A DNA stretch of 39,249 bases from an uncultured Saprospiraceae bacterium (GTDB lineage: Bacteria; Bacteroidota; Bacteroidia; Chitinophagales; Saprospiraceae). The notes under the pieces are model-generated. The model saw only the letters and a list, made by a program, of their open reading frames with translations. It had not been told where the DNA came from and searched no databases. Each line of letters starts with the position of its first letter. Positions within the stretch are counted from its first letter, which is position 1. Of this stretch, positions 3,796-11,185 are shown piece by piece. Both the position numbers and the translations under genes were made by a program. The stretch spans positions 1 to 39,249 of the forward strand of contig CAKZUV010000048.1 of NCBI GenBank assembly GCA_937921555.1, read 5' to 3'.

Positions 3796-4989
3796 ATGGA
3801 AATACAACTTTTAGGACAAGGATATGAAAAAGAATCAGAAAATTCCGTAGGAAACCATCTTATCAAATTACTTTTAGATAAAGAATTCCGATCTTTTACA
3901 GCAATATCTGCATTTATTAGCCAAGCTGGAATAACAGGATTATCAACTCATTTTGAAAAAGCAAAACGTCATCTTGACGTTATTACAATTATAACTGGGG
4001 TCGATCAAAAAGGAACATCTAAAGAGGCACTAGAAGCATTAATTAAATTAGATGTCAACGCTTATGTTTTTTATCAACCTTCCGTCACGATTTTCCACCC
4101 AAAGATTTACCTATTTGAAGGAATCAAAAAATCTGTATTGATAATTGGTTCTTCAAATTTAACTGCGCAAGGTCTATTCAGTAACATCGAAGCATCCTTG
4201 CGTTTAAATGTTAATAATGAGGAGGATAACGAAATAATTACCCAACTCAAAAGTTACTACAAAGGGTTATTTGACTTATCTGAACCAAATTTAAAGAAAC
4301 TCAATAAAAAATTAATCAAGGGATTAGTAAAAGCGGAGGTAGTACCAACAGAAGAAGAAAGAAAAGCAATTCAGGATAAAGCAAAAAAAGTCGGTAATAA
4401 GGAAAGCCAAAAGCTCATATATCAAATATTTCCCAAAAGAGAAATTGCAAAAATACCTATATCTTTTAGGAAACCCAGAAAAGGTTCAAAAAAGAAGAAA
4501 ACTAAAAAACAAAGATCAACAGTAAAAAAAGCAAAAACAGCTTTTGATAAAGCTTCTTTATTATGGGAAAGTGGTGAACTTACAGAAAGAGATTTAAATA
4601 TTCCAACTGGAGGGAATACTAATCCAACTGGCTCAATGCTCTTCAAGAAAGGAAAAAATGAAGATATTGATCACAGACATTTTTTCCGAGATGAGATTTT
4701 CAATTCTTTAAATTGGCAGAATGACCCAAAGAAACGTCTTTCACATTTAGAAAGAGCAACTGCAATTTTTACGATAATTGTAGAAGGAAAAGAAAAAGGG
4801 ACTTTTGAATTAAAGCTTTCACATAATTCAAGAACTAATACTACGACATACAAACAAAAGAACTCCATGACCTCAATCAGTTGGGGAGAAGCTAAGGCAC
4901 TTATTGCCAAAAAAGGACTTATTGGCAAATCAGTTAAACTTTACTATCAATCTGAAACAGATGATCAGTTTGTTTTAGTTTTTGAATAA
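3796..4989 (+). CDS. Restriction endonuclease with phospholipase D fold (NgoFVII type)
   Basis: This is a 397-residue putative restriction enzyme. Residues 95-125 hold the single PLD-superfamily motif: His101 and Lys103 in FHPKIYLFEG, followed by IIGSSNLT with Asn121. This arrangement is known from the NgoFVII and BfiI-like nucleases, which act as dimers with one HxK motif per monomer and cut without a metal ion. A strongly basic linker (KPRKGSKKKKTKKQ, about 225-240) precedes a C-terminal domain of about 150 residues that probably recognises DNA. The gene is markedly AT-rich compared with trmN6 upstream. A controller-type regulator and an N6-adenine methyltransferase follow on the same strand, which supports the restriction role. 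The recognition site cannot be read from the sequence. Confidence 0.8.
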   Translation: MEIQLLGQGYEKESENSVGNHLIKLLLDKEFRSFTAISAFISQAGITGLSTHFEKAKRHLDVITIITGVDQKGTSKEALEALIKLDVNAYVFYQPSVTIFHPKIYLFEGIKKSVLIIGSSNLTAQGLFSNIEASLRLNVNNEEDNEIITQLKSYYKGLFDLSEPNLKKLNKKLIKGLVKAEVVPTEEERKAIQDKAKKVGNKESQKLIYQIFPKREIAKIPISFRKPRKGSKKKKTKKQRSTVKKAKTAFDKASLLWESGELTERDLNIPTGGNTNPTGSMLFKKGKNEDIDHRHFFRDEIFNSLNWQNDPKKRLSHLERATAIFTIIVEGKEKGTFELKLSHNSRTNTTTYKQKNSMTSISWGEAKALIAKKGLIGKSVKLYYQSETDDQFVLVFE

Positions 4990-5046
4990 TTTTTTAACAT
5001 AAACCGATAATTTTTCTCAATTTAAGCAATAAGGCCATAATTTTCT

Positions 5047-5054
5047 TATATTTG
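5047..5054 (+). promoter_or_regulatory. Predicted -7 promoter element of the controller-methyltransferase operon
   Basis: TATATTTG fits TAnnTTTG, 19 bases before the controller ATG. Its last four bases are the left end of the inverted repeat at 5051-5071, so promoter and operator overlap. Confidence 0.6.
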
Positions 5055-5071
5055 GACAAAATTAGTCCAAA
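5051..5071. promoter_or_regulatory. Probable controller-protein operator (C-box-like inverted repeat)
   Basis: TTTGGAC (5051-5057) and GTCCAAA (5065-5071) are perfect 7-base inverted arms with an AT-only 7-base spacer. The site covers the end of the -7 element and the expected transcription start, and lies directly before a gene for an XRE-type regulator. Controller proteins of restriction-modification systems bind such symmetric sites at their own promoters. The binding itself is inferred. Confidence 0.6.
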
Positions 5072-5073
5072 AT

Positions 5074-5391
5074 ATGTTTTCTAAATCATTTGGTGAAATA
5101 ATAAAATCTTTTCGAGAACAAAAGAACTTGCCACTTCGTGTTGTAGCAAAAGAGGTCGGTATTGATACTTCCACTCTAGGCAAAATAGAAAAGAATGAAA
5201 GAAACCCTTCCGAAGATTTAATTCGTAAGTTTTCCATTTATTTTAAAATTGACGAAAAGAACTTACTTATTGCTTCCAAAAGTGACAATGTAGCATATAA
5301 ACTAATGGAAGATGATAATGCGATTGAAATATTAAAAGCAGCAGAAGAAAAGGTAAAATATATTACAAAAAACAAAAACGAGGAATCATGA
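5074..5391 (+). CDS. XRE-family regulator, probable R-M controller protein
   Basis: This 105-residue protein has an N-terminal XRE/Cro helix-turn-helix covering about residues 3-62, from FGEIIKSFREQ through GIDTSTLGKIEKNERNPS. The tail is short, Lys-rich and helical. Its size and position match the controller (C) proteins that time expression of restriction-modification genes. The stop codon overlaps the methyltransferase start in an ATGA arrangement, so both are translated from one message. The 7-base-arm palindrome over its own promoter suggests autoregulation. It could alternatively be a general repressor of the methyltransferase, a common pairing in Bacteroidota. Confidence 0.85.
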   Translation: MFSKSFGEIIKSFREQKNLPLRVVAKEVGIDTSTLGKIEKNERNPSEDLIRKFSIYFKIDEKNLLIASKSDNVAYKLMEDDNAIEILKAAEEKVKYITKNKNEES

Positions 5392-6995
5392 AATTAATGT
5401 CAGAAGCTTCTGCTGAAAAATTAAGAGGTGGTTTTTACACTCCTGAACCTATTGCCTCATTCGTTCTTAAATGGGGAATAAATGGGAGTAAGAATTATAA
5501 CATTCTTGAACCAAGTTGTGGTGATGGAGTATTTTTAGAACAAATCAAGAAAAATAAGTTAAAATACGAATCAGTTACTGCAATTGAATTAGATAAAGTT
5601 GAAGCAGAAAAAGCTAAAAGCATTCAACTGAAAAATTATAGAGTAATTAATAAAGATTTTCATACTTATTGCAATGAAACTAAAGATAGTTATGATTTAA
5701 TTATTGGTAACCCTCCATATATTCGATACCAATTTTTTGATAAATATCAACAAGTTGAAGCGGCCGACATTTTTACAAAGGCAGGGTTAAAATATTCTAA
5801 ACTTACAAATGCTTGGGTTTCTTTTGTGGTTGGTAGTTCCTTGTTACTTAAAGAATCAGGTAAAATTGGATTTGTTTTACCAGCAGAAATTCTGCAGGTA
5901 TCTTATGCTCAACAATTGAGAAAGTTTATTGCTTCTTTTTACAACAAAATAAATATCATTTCATTCAAAAAATTAGTCTTTCCAAATATTCAGCAAGAGG
6001 TGGTTTTGTTACTTTGCGAAAAGAATAATTCGGGAAAACATAATATTGAGCATATTGAATTGAATAATGCAAGCGAATTAGAAAGATTGGATATTGAAAG
6101 ATTAAAAAGTCCTAAAAAGCAGATTGATTTTAACTCAAATAAGTGGACTTTTTATTTCCTTGATCAAGAAGAGATAGATTTTCTAGAGACAATTGCAGAA
6201 AGAAGAAAAATACCTACAATAAAAAAATATGCTAAAGTAGAAGTTGGAATAACAACAGGGTCTAATTCTTTTTTTACTGTTCCCTTAACTACGGTTAAAG
6301 AATACAATCTTTCAAATTATGCTAAACCAATGGTTGGAAGAAGTGTACAGGTTAAAAGTGTTATATTTAACGAGGAAGATTGGAAGGAGAATAAAAATTC
6401 AAAAGCAAGGGCACATCTTTTAGTCTTTCCTAAGAAAGATAAGGATCGTCAGAAAAATGGTGCTGCAAAATATATTGAGCAAGGTGAAGAACTTAAAATT
6501 CACCAAGGCTATAAAACTTCAATCCGTGATTTCTGGTATGTAGTACCGTCTTTAAAAATTTCTGATGCCCTATTTATTAGAAGAAATAATCTATATCCAA
6601 GATTAATTATTAATGAAGCCAATGCCTATACCACAGATACAATGCACCGAGTTTTTTTATATCCAACTACAGATATTCAAGCATTTACGGCGAGTTACTA
6701 TAATTCATTGTCTTTAGCATTTACAGAAGTTTGTGGAAGAAGTCATGGAGGAGGTGTTTTGGAATTAATGCCGAATGAAACTGAAAGAGTGCTTTTACCC
6801 TACCGTATCGAGAACAGAGAGTTACTCACTAAAATTGATGAACTGATTCGGTCTAAAACAAATATTGAAGAAGTACTGGCAATTACGAATAAGGTTATTT
6901 TAAAGAAGCATTTCAAGCTGACGAATAAGGAAATCGATCTTGCTCATAACATCTGGAAAAAATTATCGTCAAGAAGATTAAATAGGGGGAAATAA
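5388..6995 (+). CDS. Adenine-specific N6 DNA methyltransferase (Eco57I/TaqI-like)
   Basis: This 535-residue enzyme transfers a methyl group from SAM to N6 of adenine in DNA. The N-terminus carries GGFYTP (residues 14-19, motif X), the SAM-binding motif ILEPSCGDGVFLE (39-51) and the catalytic NPPYIRYQ (108-115). The C-terminal half (about residues 240-535) resembles the TaqI-like specificity region, with ITTGSNSFFTV and GRSVQVKSV segments. It is translationally coupled by a 4-base overlap to the controller gene. The endonuclease lies upstream with its own predicted promoter, so together they form a type II-like module in which methylation should protect host DNA. Base composition is as AT-rich as the endonuclease, unlike flanking core genes, which suggests acquisition as a unit. 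Confidence 0.88.
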   Translation: MKLMSEASAEKLRGGFYTPEPIASFVLKWGINGSKNYNILEPSCGDGVFLEQIKKNKLKYESVTAIELDKVEAEKAKSIQLKNYRVINKDFHTYCNETKDSYDLIIGNPPYIRYQFFDKYQQVEAADIFTKAGLKYSKLTNAWVSFVVGSSLLLKESGKIGFVLPAEILQVSYAQQLRKFIASFYNKINIISFKKLVFPNIQQEVVLLLCEKNNSGKHNIEHIELNNASELERLDIERLKSPKKQIDFNSNKWTFYFLDQEEIDFLETIAERRKIPTIKKYAKVEVGITTGSNSFFTVPLTTVKEYNLSNYAKPMVGRSVQVKSVIFNEEDWKENKNSKARAHLLVFPKKDKDRQKNGAAKYIEQGEELKIHQGYKTSIRDFWYVVPSLKISDALFIRRNNLYPRLIINEANAYTTDTMHRVFLYPTTDIQAFTASYYNSLSLAFTEVCGRSHGGGVLELMPNETERVLLPYRIENRELLTKIDELIRSKTNIEEVLAITNKVILKKHFKLTNKEIDLAHNIWKKLSSRRLNRGK

Positions 6996-7644: not shown

Positions 7645-9663
7645 TTAAGCAGTTCCGCCGTTCAGTTTATCCTGCCAGGCGGAGAGCTCGCTCCATTTGC
7701 CGTGTGCGGCCATTTTAGCCTGTTCGGACCAAGTACTTGGATCGTGCATTTTATAGCGTGAGCCAGCGTTGGCGAGGATGGTTTTGATTTGATCGGTAGG
7801 TGTTTCGGAAAGCTGTTTCCAGGTATTGATACCTGCTTCGTAGAGCAGTTGTTCAATTTTAGGACCGATACCTTCGACTACTTTCAGGTTATCAGGTTCG
7901 GTGGTAATTACCTCGCTGAGTTCCTCTATCTGTGTGTCTTCTTTTTCGATGCGGGTAGTGATACCATTAGAAGAATGATTTTTAATCACCTTTCGTCCGG
8001 TCACTTCGCGGATCACCTCTACGGGTTTGATGGTCTGTGTGTTGGTGTTGGTAGAAACGGCTACTTCGCGGATTACTTCTACCTCGCGGATCACTTCCAC
8101 CTCCTTGATGACCTGCACGGGCACCTCACGGATTACCTCTATTTCTTTAATCACCTCTACCTCTTTAATCACTTCTACGGGCACTTCCTTAATTACCTCC
8201 ACTTCCTGAATGACCTGCACGGGCACTTCGCGGATCACTTCTATTTCTTTGATGACCTGCACGGGCACCTCTTTCACCACGTCCCGGACAACCTCTACCT
8301 CTTTGATGACTTCTACGGGGACTTCCTTAATGACTTCCACTTCGTTGATCACCTGTACCTCTTTGATCACTTCTACGGGAATTTCCTTCACCACCTCAAT
8401 CTCTTTGATGACCTGAACGGGGACTTCCTTGATTACGTCCACATATTTGATGACTTCGACCTCTTTGATGACCTGAACGGGCACCTCTTTGATTACTTCT
8501 ACTTCTTTGATAACCTCCACTTCTTTTATCATTTCTACGGGCACTTCTTTTACCACTTCAATTTCTTTAACTACCTCAACTTCTTTAATCACTTCAAAAG
8601 GTACTTCTTTAATGACTTCCACTTCGTTGATGACTTCGACCTCTTTAATTACTTCAACGGGTACTTTTACCTCTTTGATTACCTCTACGTTCTTTACTAC
8701 TTCGACCTCTTTGATGACTTCAACCTCAACCTCTTTGATGACTTCGACCTCGTTGATCACCTCTACTTCTTTAATCACTTCCACCTCTTTGATGACTTCC
8801 ACTTCCTTGATCATTTCTACGGGAATCTCTTTAATCACCTCTACTTCTTTGATAATTTCGACTTCCTTCGTCACGGGCACATCGCGGGTTAGTTCGACGG
8901 TTTTCATCACTTCCACTTCTTTCACCACTTCCACCGGTACCTCTTTGATGACCTCTACGATTTCTTTTACTTCGACGATTCTATCTACCATTACTTCCTT
9001 AATCACCTCAATTTCCTTGATGACTTCGACCTCTTTGATGACCTGCACGGGCACTTCGCGGATGACTTCTACCTCTTTGATGACCTCAACGGTCGTCTCA
9101 ACGGGCACTTCCTTGATGATTTCTACCGTTTTGACGTTGTCAATCTCTTTAAACAATTCGACGGGCACCTCTCGGATCACCTCCACCTCTTTGATGACGT
9201 CCTGATTTTTGATAATTACTTTATCCCGGAAAACCTCCACTTCCTTGATAACTTCCACTTCTTTGATCACTTCTACGGGTACTTCCTTAATCACCTCTAC
9301 ATTTTTGATGACTTCAACGGGTACTTCTACCTCTTTGATGACTTCCACTTCCTTGATCACCTCTACCTCTTTCACCTCGCTGGCGGCCTGACGGGCCAGT
9401 CTCAAATCAGTTTCAGTCTGGGCGAATCTAGTTTTCAGGGAATTATAATCCGTTTCTATACTGGTTTTAGCCTTCAGGTTGGTATCCATTTCCATTTGTA
9501 AAGCGGAAAATTTCTTATTGGATTCCGATTCCAGTTCCGAATAGCGGCTGGACATCATATAATTTCTGATCCAGTAGCCTAGCAGCCAGGAGAAAGCCAT
9601 CGCCAGGGCAGCCAGTAACCAGCAGCCTCCGGTGGATAAAAGTAAGATTGAATTCGATAACAT
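7645..9663 (-). CDS. Membrane-anchored V-E-V-I-K-E repeat protein with C-terminal helix-hairpin-helix domain
   Basis: The 672-residue product has four parts. Residues 1-33 hold one hydrophobic membrane segment followed by Arg-rich WIRNYMMSSR, so the positive-inside rule places the rest in the cytoplasm. Residues 40-95 look like a coiled coil. Residues 96-536 are about seventy imperfect copies of a 6-residue unit VEVIKE, regularly replaced by an 8-residue variant VPVEVIKE. Residues 590-672 hold a helix-hairpin-helix-like domain (LKVVEGIGPKIEQLLYEAG) and a Trp-rich tail seen in H3TH/flap-nuclease-like small domains. Codons differ between units, so the array is old or selected at protein level rather than freshly amplified. 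It is divergent from an OmpA-family gene. Function is unknown. A DNA-binding tether is suggested by topology and HhH, but not proven. Confidence 0.85.
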   Translation of the reverse strand: MLSNSILLLSTGGCWLLAALAMAFSWLLGYWIRNYMMSSRYSELESESNKKFSALQMEMDTNLKAKTSIETDYNSLKTRFAQTETDLRLARQAASEVKEVEVIKEVEVIKEVEVPVEVIKNVEVIKEVPVEVIKEVEVIKEVEVFRDKVIIKNQDVIKEVEVIREVPVELFKEIDNVKTVEIIKEVPVETTVEVIKEVEVIREVPVQVIKEVEVIKEIEVIKEVMVDRIVEVKEIVEVIKEVPVEVVKEVEVMKTVELTRDVPVTKEVEIIKEVEVIKEIPVEMIKEVEVIKEVEVIKEVEVINEVEVIKEVEVEVIKEVEVVKNVEVIKEVKVPVEVIKEVEVINEVEVIKEVPFEVIKEVEVVKEIEVVKEVPVEMIKEVEVIKEVEVIKEVPVQVIKEVEVIKYVDVIKEVPVQVIKEIEVVKEIPVEVIKEVQVINEVEVIKEVPVEVIKEVEVVRDVVKEVPVQVIKEIEVIREVPVQVIQEVEVIKEVPVEVIKEVEVIKEIEVIREVPVQVIKEVEVIREVEVIREVAVSTNTNTQTIKPVEVIREVTGRKVIKNHSSNGITTRIEKEDTQIEELSEVITTEPDNLKVVEGIGPKIEQLLYEAGINTWKQLSETPTDQIKTILANAGSRYKMHDPSTWSEQAKMAAHGKWSELSAWQDKLNGGTA
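8056..9378 (-). repeat. Coding tandem repeat, 18-base and 24-base units
   Basis: This is the DNA encoding the V-E-V-I-K-E array, about 1.3 kb of degenerate 18-base units (6 codons) interspersed with 24-base units (8 codons). All three frames of the opposite strand stay partly open because of the periodicity. Unit sequences vary at third positions. The length is a likely source of polymorphism between strains and of assembly error. Confidence 0.85.
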
Positions 9664-10324
9664 AGTCTAGTTATTTGTTATATATGTGATTAAATATTGC
9701 TAAAATCTTAGACCGGACCATCGTCCAGGAGAACTCTGGCAACGGGTGTTACGAATACCTGGCAGGATTAAAATCCAGCAGATGTAACAGCCTGTGCCGC
9801 GTTCTGACTACCTGAAGCACTATATCTTTTTAGAATATGCGCTAGCGGAAAGCCGTCTGCAGTAACGATTTGGAAAAATTAAAGTCCTGGAAATTGTGTG
9901 TAGATCGAATTAAAAAGATTCTCTTCTGACAGTTAAAGGGATTTAAGTTTTCTCTCAATTTTTAAAAATAGTATGTTGATGTATCAATAAGCGAAGGTAA
10001 GATAAACTTTTCTTTTATTAAAAAGAAATCTATTTTTTAATAGAAAAATATTTTTTACCAAAAGTAAATATTCTGATTTTATTTCAATATAATTTAGAAA
10101 ATTATTTTTCCAGATTTCGCACTTTTCGTTAAAAGCCGTACCTTTACAAGCATCATAAATCGTCTTAACGGTTTTATGACGTAGTTTTACCCAAAAAGTC
10201 ATGTACATATTTATAAATTTTACAAATTCGGAAGCATACTGGAAAAAAGTTACCCGTTATTTTAGTCATTTACTATTTTGATTCATGACTTTTCTGGTAT
10301 AAATCCTAAAAACAAACATTTGCG
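9664..10324. other. 661-base intergenic region between divergent genes
   Basis: No convincing gene is visible. About 9690-9850 is of mixed composition with several short self-complementary segments, for example CCAGGAG/CTCTGG near 9726-9740, and could hold a structured RNA or long 5' leader. About 9950-10120 is extremely AT-rich with A/T-run hairpins. An open frame at 9984-10208 (-) has no family resemblance and biased Lys/Phe/Asn content, so I do not call it. The promoters of both flanking genes must lie here, but no clean TAnnTTTG element was found. Confidence 0.5.
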
Positions 10325-11185
10325 ATGAGACCACTATTATTTGTAATATCCTTTTTCTGGATTCTTGGAGGTTCCTTCTTTCTGTCTAAACTATTTTGTC
10401 CTGCGGCTGCCGCCGGCGCTGCTGCTACGACCAGCAATCTTAGTCTGATTGACGGAGATTTCAAAGCGACCTCTACCGGAAATTATAACTTTCCGAAAAG
10501 CACCGCTGCCATTGCGATCACGGATCACGCCAGAGATAATTATTTTAAAAAAACAGCTAATTACCTGATGGATCATCCGGAAAAGACGCTCGCACTGACG
10601 GGTGTTTATGCGATCGATGAATCCAACAAAACAGATTATGCCAACCTGGGAATTGCCCGCGCCGAAGCGGTAAAAGAGGTATTGGTTTCGGATGGTGCGA
10701 GCACAGAACAGATTTCTACCACCGGAATGGAAGCATCTGATCTGGGATTTATTGATAAAAAATTGTACAATTCGGTAAAGTTTGATCTCTCTACCAATGA
10801 CATGGGCGCTGCCGCAGCATCCACCCTCAACTTTGACGACTCCAAAACCGTTTATTTCAACGGAGATGAAGCTGGATTCCCCGAGGATGATCCGAAATTA
10901 CTGGACATCATTGATTATCTGGCTTCCTATATGACAACTAATCCGGACGCAATTATTATCGTCAGTGGTTATACGGATAATCAGGGCAGATCTTCTGAAA
11001 AAATGAAAATTGCTAAACAAAGAGCGGAAAGAATCCGTAGAATCATTCGAGATTCCAACGGAGGTAAATTCTTCCCATCCAAGCAGGTAATCGCAAAAGC
11101 AGTGGGACCGCAGGATCCGCAGGCTGACAACGAAACCGCCGAAGGGATGGCCATTAACAACCGCGTGACGATTGTGGTAGAATAA
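10325..11185 (+). CDS. OmpA-family protein with two tandem OmpA-like domains
   Basis: This 286-residue envelope protein has an N-terminal hydrophobic segment at residues 2-22 and an Ala-rich linker. Two OmpA C-like peptidoglycan-binding domains follow. The first (about residues 55-150) is degenerate, though it keeps the LGIARAEAVKEVL helix. The second (about 170-286) is well preserved: VYFNGDEAGF, VSGYTDNQGRSSEKMKIAKQRAERI and the terminal NNRVTIVV. Known OmpA-like domains bind diaminopimelate in peptidoglycan through conserved Asp and Arg residues; the Asp of GYTDNQG and Arg of KQRAERI fit. It is transcribed divergently from the repeat/HhH gene, and the pair may act together at the envelope. 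That link is inferred from position only. Confidence 0.83.
   Translation: MRPLLFVISFFWILGGSFFLSKLFCPAAAAGAAATTSNLSLIDGDFKATSTGNYNFPKSTAAIAITDHARDNYFKKTANYLMDHPEKTLALTGVYAIDESNKTDYANLGIARAEAVKEVLVSDGASTEQISTTGMEASDLGFIDKKLYNSVKFDLSTNDMGAAAASTLNFDDSKTVYFNGDEAGFPEDDPKLLDIIDYLASYMTTNPDAIIIVSGYTDNQGRSSEKMKIAKQRAERIRRIIRDSNGGKFFPSKQVIAKAVGPQDPQADNETAEGMAINNRVTIVVE

What the first reader, a model, noticed from the sequence alone, without database searches (positions are those of the whole stretch)
7645..9663. Membrane-anchored V-E-V-I-K-E arm ending in a helix-hairpin-helix: candidate membrane-to-DNA tether
The sequence shows one transmembrane segment with Arg residues on its C-terminal side, a short coiled coil, about 440 residues of 6- and 8-residue V/E/I/K repeats, and an HhH domain with a Trp-rich tail. 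By the positive-inside rule the arm and the HhH domain are cytoplasmic, where an HhH can meet DNA. An arm of this length could span tens of nanometres. I know no characterised protein with this layout. Synonymous variation among units suggests selection on the protein repeat, not recent slippage.
Basis: partly seen in the sequence, partly recalled or inferred. Interest (0 to 1): 0.78.

Follow-up and report, generated by a model that had tools for sequence, protein, structure and literature searches.

The report
Envelope-anchored β-arm and HhH module
Bacteria of the Saprospiraceae carry an undescribed gene module in which a protein with a wall-binding-type (OmpA) domain is paired with a membrane protein whose long, two-faced repeat arm ends inside the cell in a helix-hairpin-helix domain, so it looks like an envelope-anchored internal scaffold; binding to DNA is possible but not shown.

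Summary
The 672-aa ORF has one transmembrane helix, a coil, a 454-aa V/E/I/K arm and a C-terminal HhH domain. The arm is under strong purifying selection, and its length is fixed to within 2 residues across genus orthologs.

The bigger finding is that the protein is half of a conserved module. 49 of 50 arm proteins with a membrane anchor lie next to a gene for an N-terminally anchored OmpA-family protein (window 10325-11185). An arm-less version (OmpA plus TM-coil-HhH) occurs elsewhere in Bacteroidia. In Saprospiraceae a third gene often follows: HU-like helices + arm + HhH, without a membrane anchor.

The arm is a charge-segregated two-faced strand: acid residues on one face, basic on the other, with unit spacing even in 2,594 of 2,600 cases. 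Its composition resembles eukaryotic epiplastins. The C-terminus is cytoplasmic by sequence.

DNA tethering is only partly supported. The same HhH domain ends L27, S16 and S1 in this genome, and elsewhere L17, L21, NuoE and photosynthetic protein-O. In the window protein it has no net charge, behind an acidic linker.

Best reading: an OmpA-coupled, membrane-anchored cytoplasmic scaffold whose arms co-assemble and whose HhH domains are connector nodes. No assembly, binding or localisation has been shown.

The parts
7645..9663 (-). ARM-A gene: TM - coil - V/E/I/K arm - HhH, 672 aa
9622..9624 (-). Cys14 codon at the predicted periplasmic end of the TM; Cys near this end in 47 of 49 genuine ARM-A proteins
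   Evidence: (invariant C14 among 8 orthologs)
9559..9621 (-). transmembrane helix (about residues 15-35), C-terminus inside by positive-inside rule
9370..9558 (-). coil (about residues 36-98), helical in the AlphaFold model with pLDDT about 80
8005..9366 (-). V/E/I/K arm, residues 100-553, two-faced alternating pattern, even spacing
7891..8004 (-). acidic linker (residues 554-591); net charge -3 over the 60 aa before the HhH
7654..7890 (-). C-terminal ~79-aa HhH domain (residues 592-670), GIGPK hairpin
10325..11185 (+). divergently transcribed partner: N-terminal TM, Cys25, OmpA-like repeat 1, OmpA domain with the D...R pair
10397..10399 (+). Cys25 codon just after the TM of the OmpA-family partner (Cys near TM end in 51 of 52 partners)
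10523..10744 (+). first, degenerate OmpA-like repeat of the partner
   Evidence: E=8.3e-6
10853..11158 (+). OmpA domain of the partner (GYTDNQGRSSEKMKIAKQRA keeps Asp and Arg 15 apart)
9664..10324 (.). 661-bp divergent intergenic region shared by the two genes (divergent order in 13 of 49 pairs)

Best explanation
The gene is one half of an envelope-anchored scaffold module. The OmpA-family partner sits in the inner membrane and reaches into the periplasm; where the Asp/Arg pair is intact, as here, it should grip peptidoglycan. It pairs at or near the membrane with the ARM-A protein (this ORF), whose coil, 454-residue arm and HhH domain lie in the cytoplasm. The arm is a two-faced extended strand, one face V/K and the other E/I/P, that lies against other arms, both ARM-A and the soluble HU-like ARM-B, to form ribbons or a mesh below the membrane. 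The HhH domains are connector nodes joining arms to each other or to other HhH-tagged partners, possibly including nucleic acid. Shown: the genes, domains, conserved gene pairing, topology signals, arm pattern and selection. Inferred: the OmpA/ARM-A contact, arm assembly, node binding and wall attachment.
For: (1) 49 of 50 ARM-A genes with at least 900 bp upstream have an OmpA-family gene within 1 kb: 36 same strand (22-120 bp apart) and 13 divergent. The window's genome has about 38 OmpA-family genes, so chance adjacency is about 2% per gene by my estimate. In Bacteroidia at large, 14 of 15 loci with an HhH protein bearing a TM have the OmpA gene next to it, against 0 of 14 without a TM. (2) Arm: 2,594 even and 6 odd spacings over 94 proteins; acid residues 0.7% on face 0 and 51% on face 1, basic 30% and 1.6%. 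(3) Arm length 452-454 aa in the genus, pN/pS about 0.05. (4) Topology in 44 of 49 by K/R bias; two-TM variants keep the same orientation. (5) ARM-B genes share arm and HhH, lie right after ARM-A in 14 loci, and have N-terminal helices like HU. (6) Composition is at or above the range published for epiplastins (V+I 46%, charged 40%, A+G 0.2%, PMC6212826).
Against: AlphaFold gives the arm pLDDT of about 25 and no strands, so beta structure rests on the sequence pattern alone. Only 30 of 54 OmpA partners pass a strict Asp/Arg regex; some others keep Asp and Arg, but the 167-180-aa partners have lost the motif, so wall binding is not universal. The Cys pair is absent in several arm-less members. 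The tallies are over related loci, not independent events. No assembly, interaction or localisation data exist.
Confidence: 0.42

Rival explanations
1. Membrane-to-DNA tether: the HhH domains, the HU-like ARM-B and its Lys/Ala-rich tails bind the chromosome, and the arm spans the gap from envelope to nucleoid.
For: GIGPK hairpin kept across 126 distinct copies. The fold resembles HhH regions of DNA polymerase iota, RadA and pol theta. ARM-B N-terminal helices match HU (E=0.003). Some ARM-B have histone-H1-like K-rich N-tails, and mean linker charge before the HhH is +6 (ARM-A) and +9 (ARM-B).
Against: The window protein's HhH has net charge 0 and its linker -3. The same domain ends L27, S16, S1, L21, L17 and CBM48-like proteins and NuoE and protein-O, where its function is called obscure (PMC12079452). 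A close structural match is NusA AR2, solved bound to SuhB. Only the HU dimerisation helices match, not its DNA-binding arms.
Confidence: 0.25
2. The arm is only a passive spacer holding the HhH away from the membrane; the two-face pattern is a by-product of copying two even-length units (6 and 8).
For: Arm-less orthologs with the same OmpA partner exist. Arm length varies between 42 and 502 aa in the family. Two even-length founding units alone give mostly even spacing. VEVIKE repeats occur as a short spacer in an unrelated phosphatase lipoprotein (L084).
Against: Even spacing holds in 569 of 571 long degenerate gaps (10 or more residues, 452 distinct sequences), where drift should produce odd lengths. 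Charge segregation is almost complete. Length is fixed within the genus.
Confidence: 0.17
3. Ribosome docking: HhH-tagged ribosomal proteins pair with the membrane HhH, placing ribosomes at the envelope.
For: In this genome the same domain ends L27, S16 and S1 as well as the arm proteins.
Against: Genomes exist with only the membrane form (G104, G135, G166) or only a ribosomal form (G082, G123), so the two are not obligate partners.
Confidence: 0.08
4. ComEA-like periplasmic DNA receptor with the HhH outside the cytoplasm.
For: One N-terminal TM followed by a C-terminal HhH.
Against: K/R bias puts the C-terminus inside in 44 of 49, and two-TM variants agree. ARM-B relatives lack a TM. Neighbours are OmpA, not competence genes. 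The best Pfam hit is HHH_5, not the ComEA-type HHH_3.
Confidence: 0.03

Closest known systems
Epiplastins / alveolins / articulins (eukaryotic membrane-skeleton proteins) and Caulobacter 'articulins' (PMC6212826)
   Same: Medial low-complexity domain rich in V, I, E, K with acid-base dyads, almost no A/G/L; globular or helical ends; several paralogues per genome
   Different: Stricter 6/8-residue units and charge-segregated faces; TM anchor, OmpA partner gene, HhH and HU-like ends; bacterial, no epiplast known; convergent or horizontal origin untested
HhH tail domain of alphaproteobacterial NuoE, reaction-center protein-O and L21 (PMC12079452; NCBIfam L21/NuoE models)
   Same: Same C-terminal domain by profile (8yy9_O E=1.2e-7; NuoE-type chain 9wqv_a E=4.5e-4)
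   Different: Here carried by envelope-anchored arm proteins in an OmpA operon; function unknown in both
MotB/Pal-type OmpA-domain anchors
   Same: The OmpA partner has an N-terminal TM, a linker and a C-terminal OmpA domain with Asp...Arg in the window
   Different: Paired with a cytoplasmic arm protein rather than a motor or Tol; OmpA domain degenerate in part of the family
HU/IHF nucleoid proteins
   Same: The first two helices of ARM-B match HU (residues 1-30)
   Different: The HU beta-saddle and arms are not matched; the V/E/I/K arm follows instead

Membership tests
Epiplastins (definition in PMC6212826) | Medial domain enriched in V, I, E, K (V+I 33 +/- 7%, charged 35 +/- 6%), poor in A, G, L | tested here: met
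   Window arm: V+I 46.3%, charged 40.1%, A+G 0.2%, L 0.4%; V+I exceeds the published mean by almost 2 SD, on the side of enrichment
Epiplastins (definition in PMC6212826) | Predicted beta-strand / coil, no alpha-helix, in the medial domain | tested here: inconclusive
   AlphaFold shows no helix and no strand, pLDDT about 25; alternation pattern fits a strand
Epiplastins (definition in PMC6212826) | Encoded by an organism that builds an epiplast | not testable with these tools
   No ultrastructure data; the host is a bacterium, so it is at most epiplastin-like
HhH tail domain of L21/NuoE/protein-O | C-terminal domain aligning with the conserved GxGPK hairpin | tested here: met
DNA-binding HhH proteins | Binds DNA through the hairpin | not testable with these tools
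   Hairpin conserved; window copy net charge 0
OmpA-type peptidoglycan-binding proteins (partner gene) | OmpA domain above the Pfam cutoff with Asp/Arg pair | tested here: met
   Window partner E=1.9e-20, GYTDNQGRSSEKMKIAKQRA; degenerate in part of the family
HU/IHF (ARM-B N-terminus) | Whole HU fold including the DNA-binding beta-arms | tested here: inconclusive
   Profile matches only HU residues 1-30, E=0.003; PF00216 in 6 of 20, best E=0.0063; HU helices superpose, rmsd 1.5 A over 34 columns, E not significant
ComEA | Periplasmic C-terminal HhH | tested here: not met
   Positive-inside bias gives a cytoplasmic C-terminus

The most novel reading that the evidence does not exclude
A bacterial analogue of a wall-to-nucleoid linker: an OmpA domain on the peptidoglycan, coupled through the inner membrane to charge-segregated beta-arms that assemble into a submembrane mesh with HU-like and HhH ends holding the chromosome.
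Probability: 0.17. Interest if true: 0.93.

Novelty: new variant of a known kind. Interest (0 to 1): 0.72.

Why it matters
It defines a conserved, uncharacterised module in Bacteroidota: an OmpA-family anchor with a cytoplasmic TM-HhH protein, expanded in Saprospiraceae by long two-faced arms. If the arms assemble, bacteria have an epiplastin-like membrane skeleton coupled to the envelope. If the HhH or HU-like ends hold DNA or ribosomes, it gives a testable physical link between the envelope and the cell interior. It also exposes a widespread C-terminal domain on ribosomal, respiratory and photosynthetic proteins whose function is unknown.

Tried and rejected
ComEA-type DNA uptake: topology and context do not fit. 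Slippage artefact: codons differ among units and orthologs are length-locked. Regular beta-solenoid: unit spacing is irregular (4 to 20), which a fixed rung does not allow, though this was not modelled. AlphaFold on the full ARM-A and ARM-B: arm uninformative. Foldseek on the ARM-A model: no significant match. VIA-align on the ARM-B model: best Z 9 to pol theta, below what that tool calls trustworthy for helical domains. Cys-Cys covariation between partners: the automatic test misplaced the TM in window-type proteins, so only conservation is reported. HhH tree: too short to resolve A from B; only the DUF1508-type class groups together. Literature: no paper in the library joins Saprospiraceae with HhH, and none of the searches turned up this module.

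Full report
Observation. The ORF at 7645-9663 (minus) is real and coding. It has a TM (about residues 15-35), a coil, a 454-aa V/E/I/K arm (100-553), an acidic linker and a C-terminal ~79-aa HhH domain (592-670). Three genus orthologs differ in the arm by a single 2-residue step. Arm pN is 0.03-0.05 against pS 0.69-0.85, and 14 of 15 EVEVIKE units in the window have distinct codons. The arm is therefore maintained by selection on the protein, and so is its length. The + strand ORFs over the repeat are shadows.

The family. A degenerate-peptide scan of GTDB genomes with the arm gave 77 loci, nearly all Saprospiraceae or Chitinophagales. By BLAST the arm occurs in 42 of 199 sampled genomes of the family and, in a sample of 392 from the phylum, only in the window's own genome. 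The phylum search used a stricter cutoff and few family members, so other occurrences are not excluded. Nearly every complete arm protein ends in the same HhH domain. Two main classes emerge: ARM-A (TM, coil, arm, HhH) and ARM-B (no TM; HU-like N-terminal helices, arm, HhH). A third set adds DUF1508-like repeats before the HhH. The window's genome has three arm proteins: this one and an ARM-A/ARM-B pair on contig 88.

The module. The OmpA-family gene next to the window ORF (10325-11185) is the conserved partner. 49 of 50 ARM-A genes with enough upstream sequence have it within 1 kb, 36 on the same strand 22-120 bp upstream and 13 divergent as in the window. The one exception is a mis-started HU-type protein in an operon that already has OmpA. 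The window's genome has 44 OmpA-domain matches in about 38 genes. The same pairing holds for arm-less TM-coil-HhH proteins of other Bacteroidia: 14 of 15 loci with a TM, but 0 of 14 loci where the HhH sits on a soluble protein. The core module is thus OmpA + TM-HhH, and the arm is an insertion in Saprospiraceae. ARM-B follows ARM-A directly in 14 loci. A P-domain protein, in some cases with its own HhH, lies in 16 loci.

Topology. 44 of 49 ARM-A proteins have more K/R after the TM than before. Three of the other five (L101, L104, L105) have an extra N-terminal TM with a Cys between the two, giving the same cytoplasmic C-terminus; one ties and one is mis-started. Cys near the periplasmic TM end is present in 47 of 49 genuine ARM-A proteins and near the TM end in 51 of 52 OmpA partners. 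In arm-less members it is often missing, so a disulfide is only a suggestion. The K/R test is uninformative for the OmpA partner; its orientation is taken from the OmpA domain.

The arm. Spacing between successive core motifs is even in 2,594 cases and odd in 6, over 94 proteins. In gaps of 10 or more residues, where sequence has drifted, it is even in 569 and odd in 2. Registering residues by parity gives one face of V (about 59%) and K/R (30%) with 0.7% acid, and another of E/D (51%), I and P with 1.6% base. This is the pattern of an extended strand with complementary faces, not of a helix. These counts share ancestry and are not independent trials. AlphaFold is silent on the arm (pLDDT about 25). 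[quoted passage not shown]).

The HhH domain. In the window's genome the same domain ends L27, S16, S1, a CBM48-like protein and a coiled-coil protein. In other Bacteroidia it ends L21 and L17. By profile it is the tail of reaction-center protein-O and NuoE, whose authors call its function obscure (PMC12079452). The hairpin is nearly invariant. The fold is close to HhH regions of pol theta, RadA and pol iota, and to NusA AR2, which has been solved bound to SuhB. The window copy has net charge 0 and an acidic linker, while many relatives have Lys-rich linkers. DNA binding is thus possible for the family but weakest for this protein.

Mechanism. I favour an OmpA-coupled scaffold (0.42). Shown: gene pairing, domains, topology signals, arm pattern, selection. 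Inferred: OmpA/ARM-A contact, arm co-assembly, HhH nodes and wall attachment. DNA tethering (0.25) is compatible with it as the role of the nodes. A passive spacer (0.17) would not need the near-perfect face segregation, and ribosome docking (0.08) is weakened by genomes that have only one of the two HhH forms.

Verdict. The DNA claim is unproven, and the important context (OmpA partner, HU-like sister, shared tag domain) lay outside the finding.

Noticed in passing
L002:864-1550; L008:39-1157; L006:1-1743 (minus); L007:988-1737: In the window's genome the same HhH domain is the C-terminus of ribosomal proteins L27, S16 and S1 and of a CBM48-like protein; in other Bacteroidia it sits on L21 (L117, L119, L129) or L17 (L124).
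   Followed up: partly
L043:7019-7990; L078:6907-7881; L048:8156-8866: Proteins with two proprotein-convertase P-domains and no obvious signal peptide lie by the arm genes in 16 loci; some end in the same HhH.
   Followed up: partly
L034, L039, L045, L050, L058, L059, L062: The DUF1508-type arm genes have their own conserved neighbours: a TPR protein and a protein with a weak DnaJ match.
   Followed up: no
L108:736-2953: A third OmpA + TM-coil-HhH pair in the window's genome, without an arm and with a diverged HhH.
   Followed up: partly
L084:4971-6749: Pseudoalteromonas alkaline-phosphatase-like lipoprotein with a short VEVIKE spacer right after its lipobox Cys: an unrelated use of the repeat.
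   Followed up: no
L100:4257-6194: Protein with VPVEVIKE repeats in a bin labelled Malacoplasma, with some odd spacings; function unknown.
   Followed up: no
window 3796-6995: A PLD/NgoFVII-like protein and an Eco57I-type methyltransferase lie side by side: a likely restriction-modification pair.
   Followed up: no
window 7789-8892 and 8489-9205 (+): Long antisense ORFs created by the repeat; shadows, not genes.
   Followed up: yes
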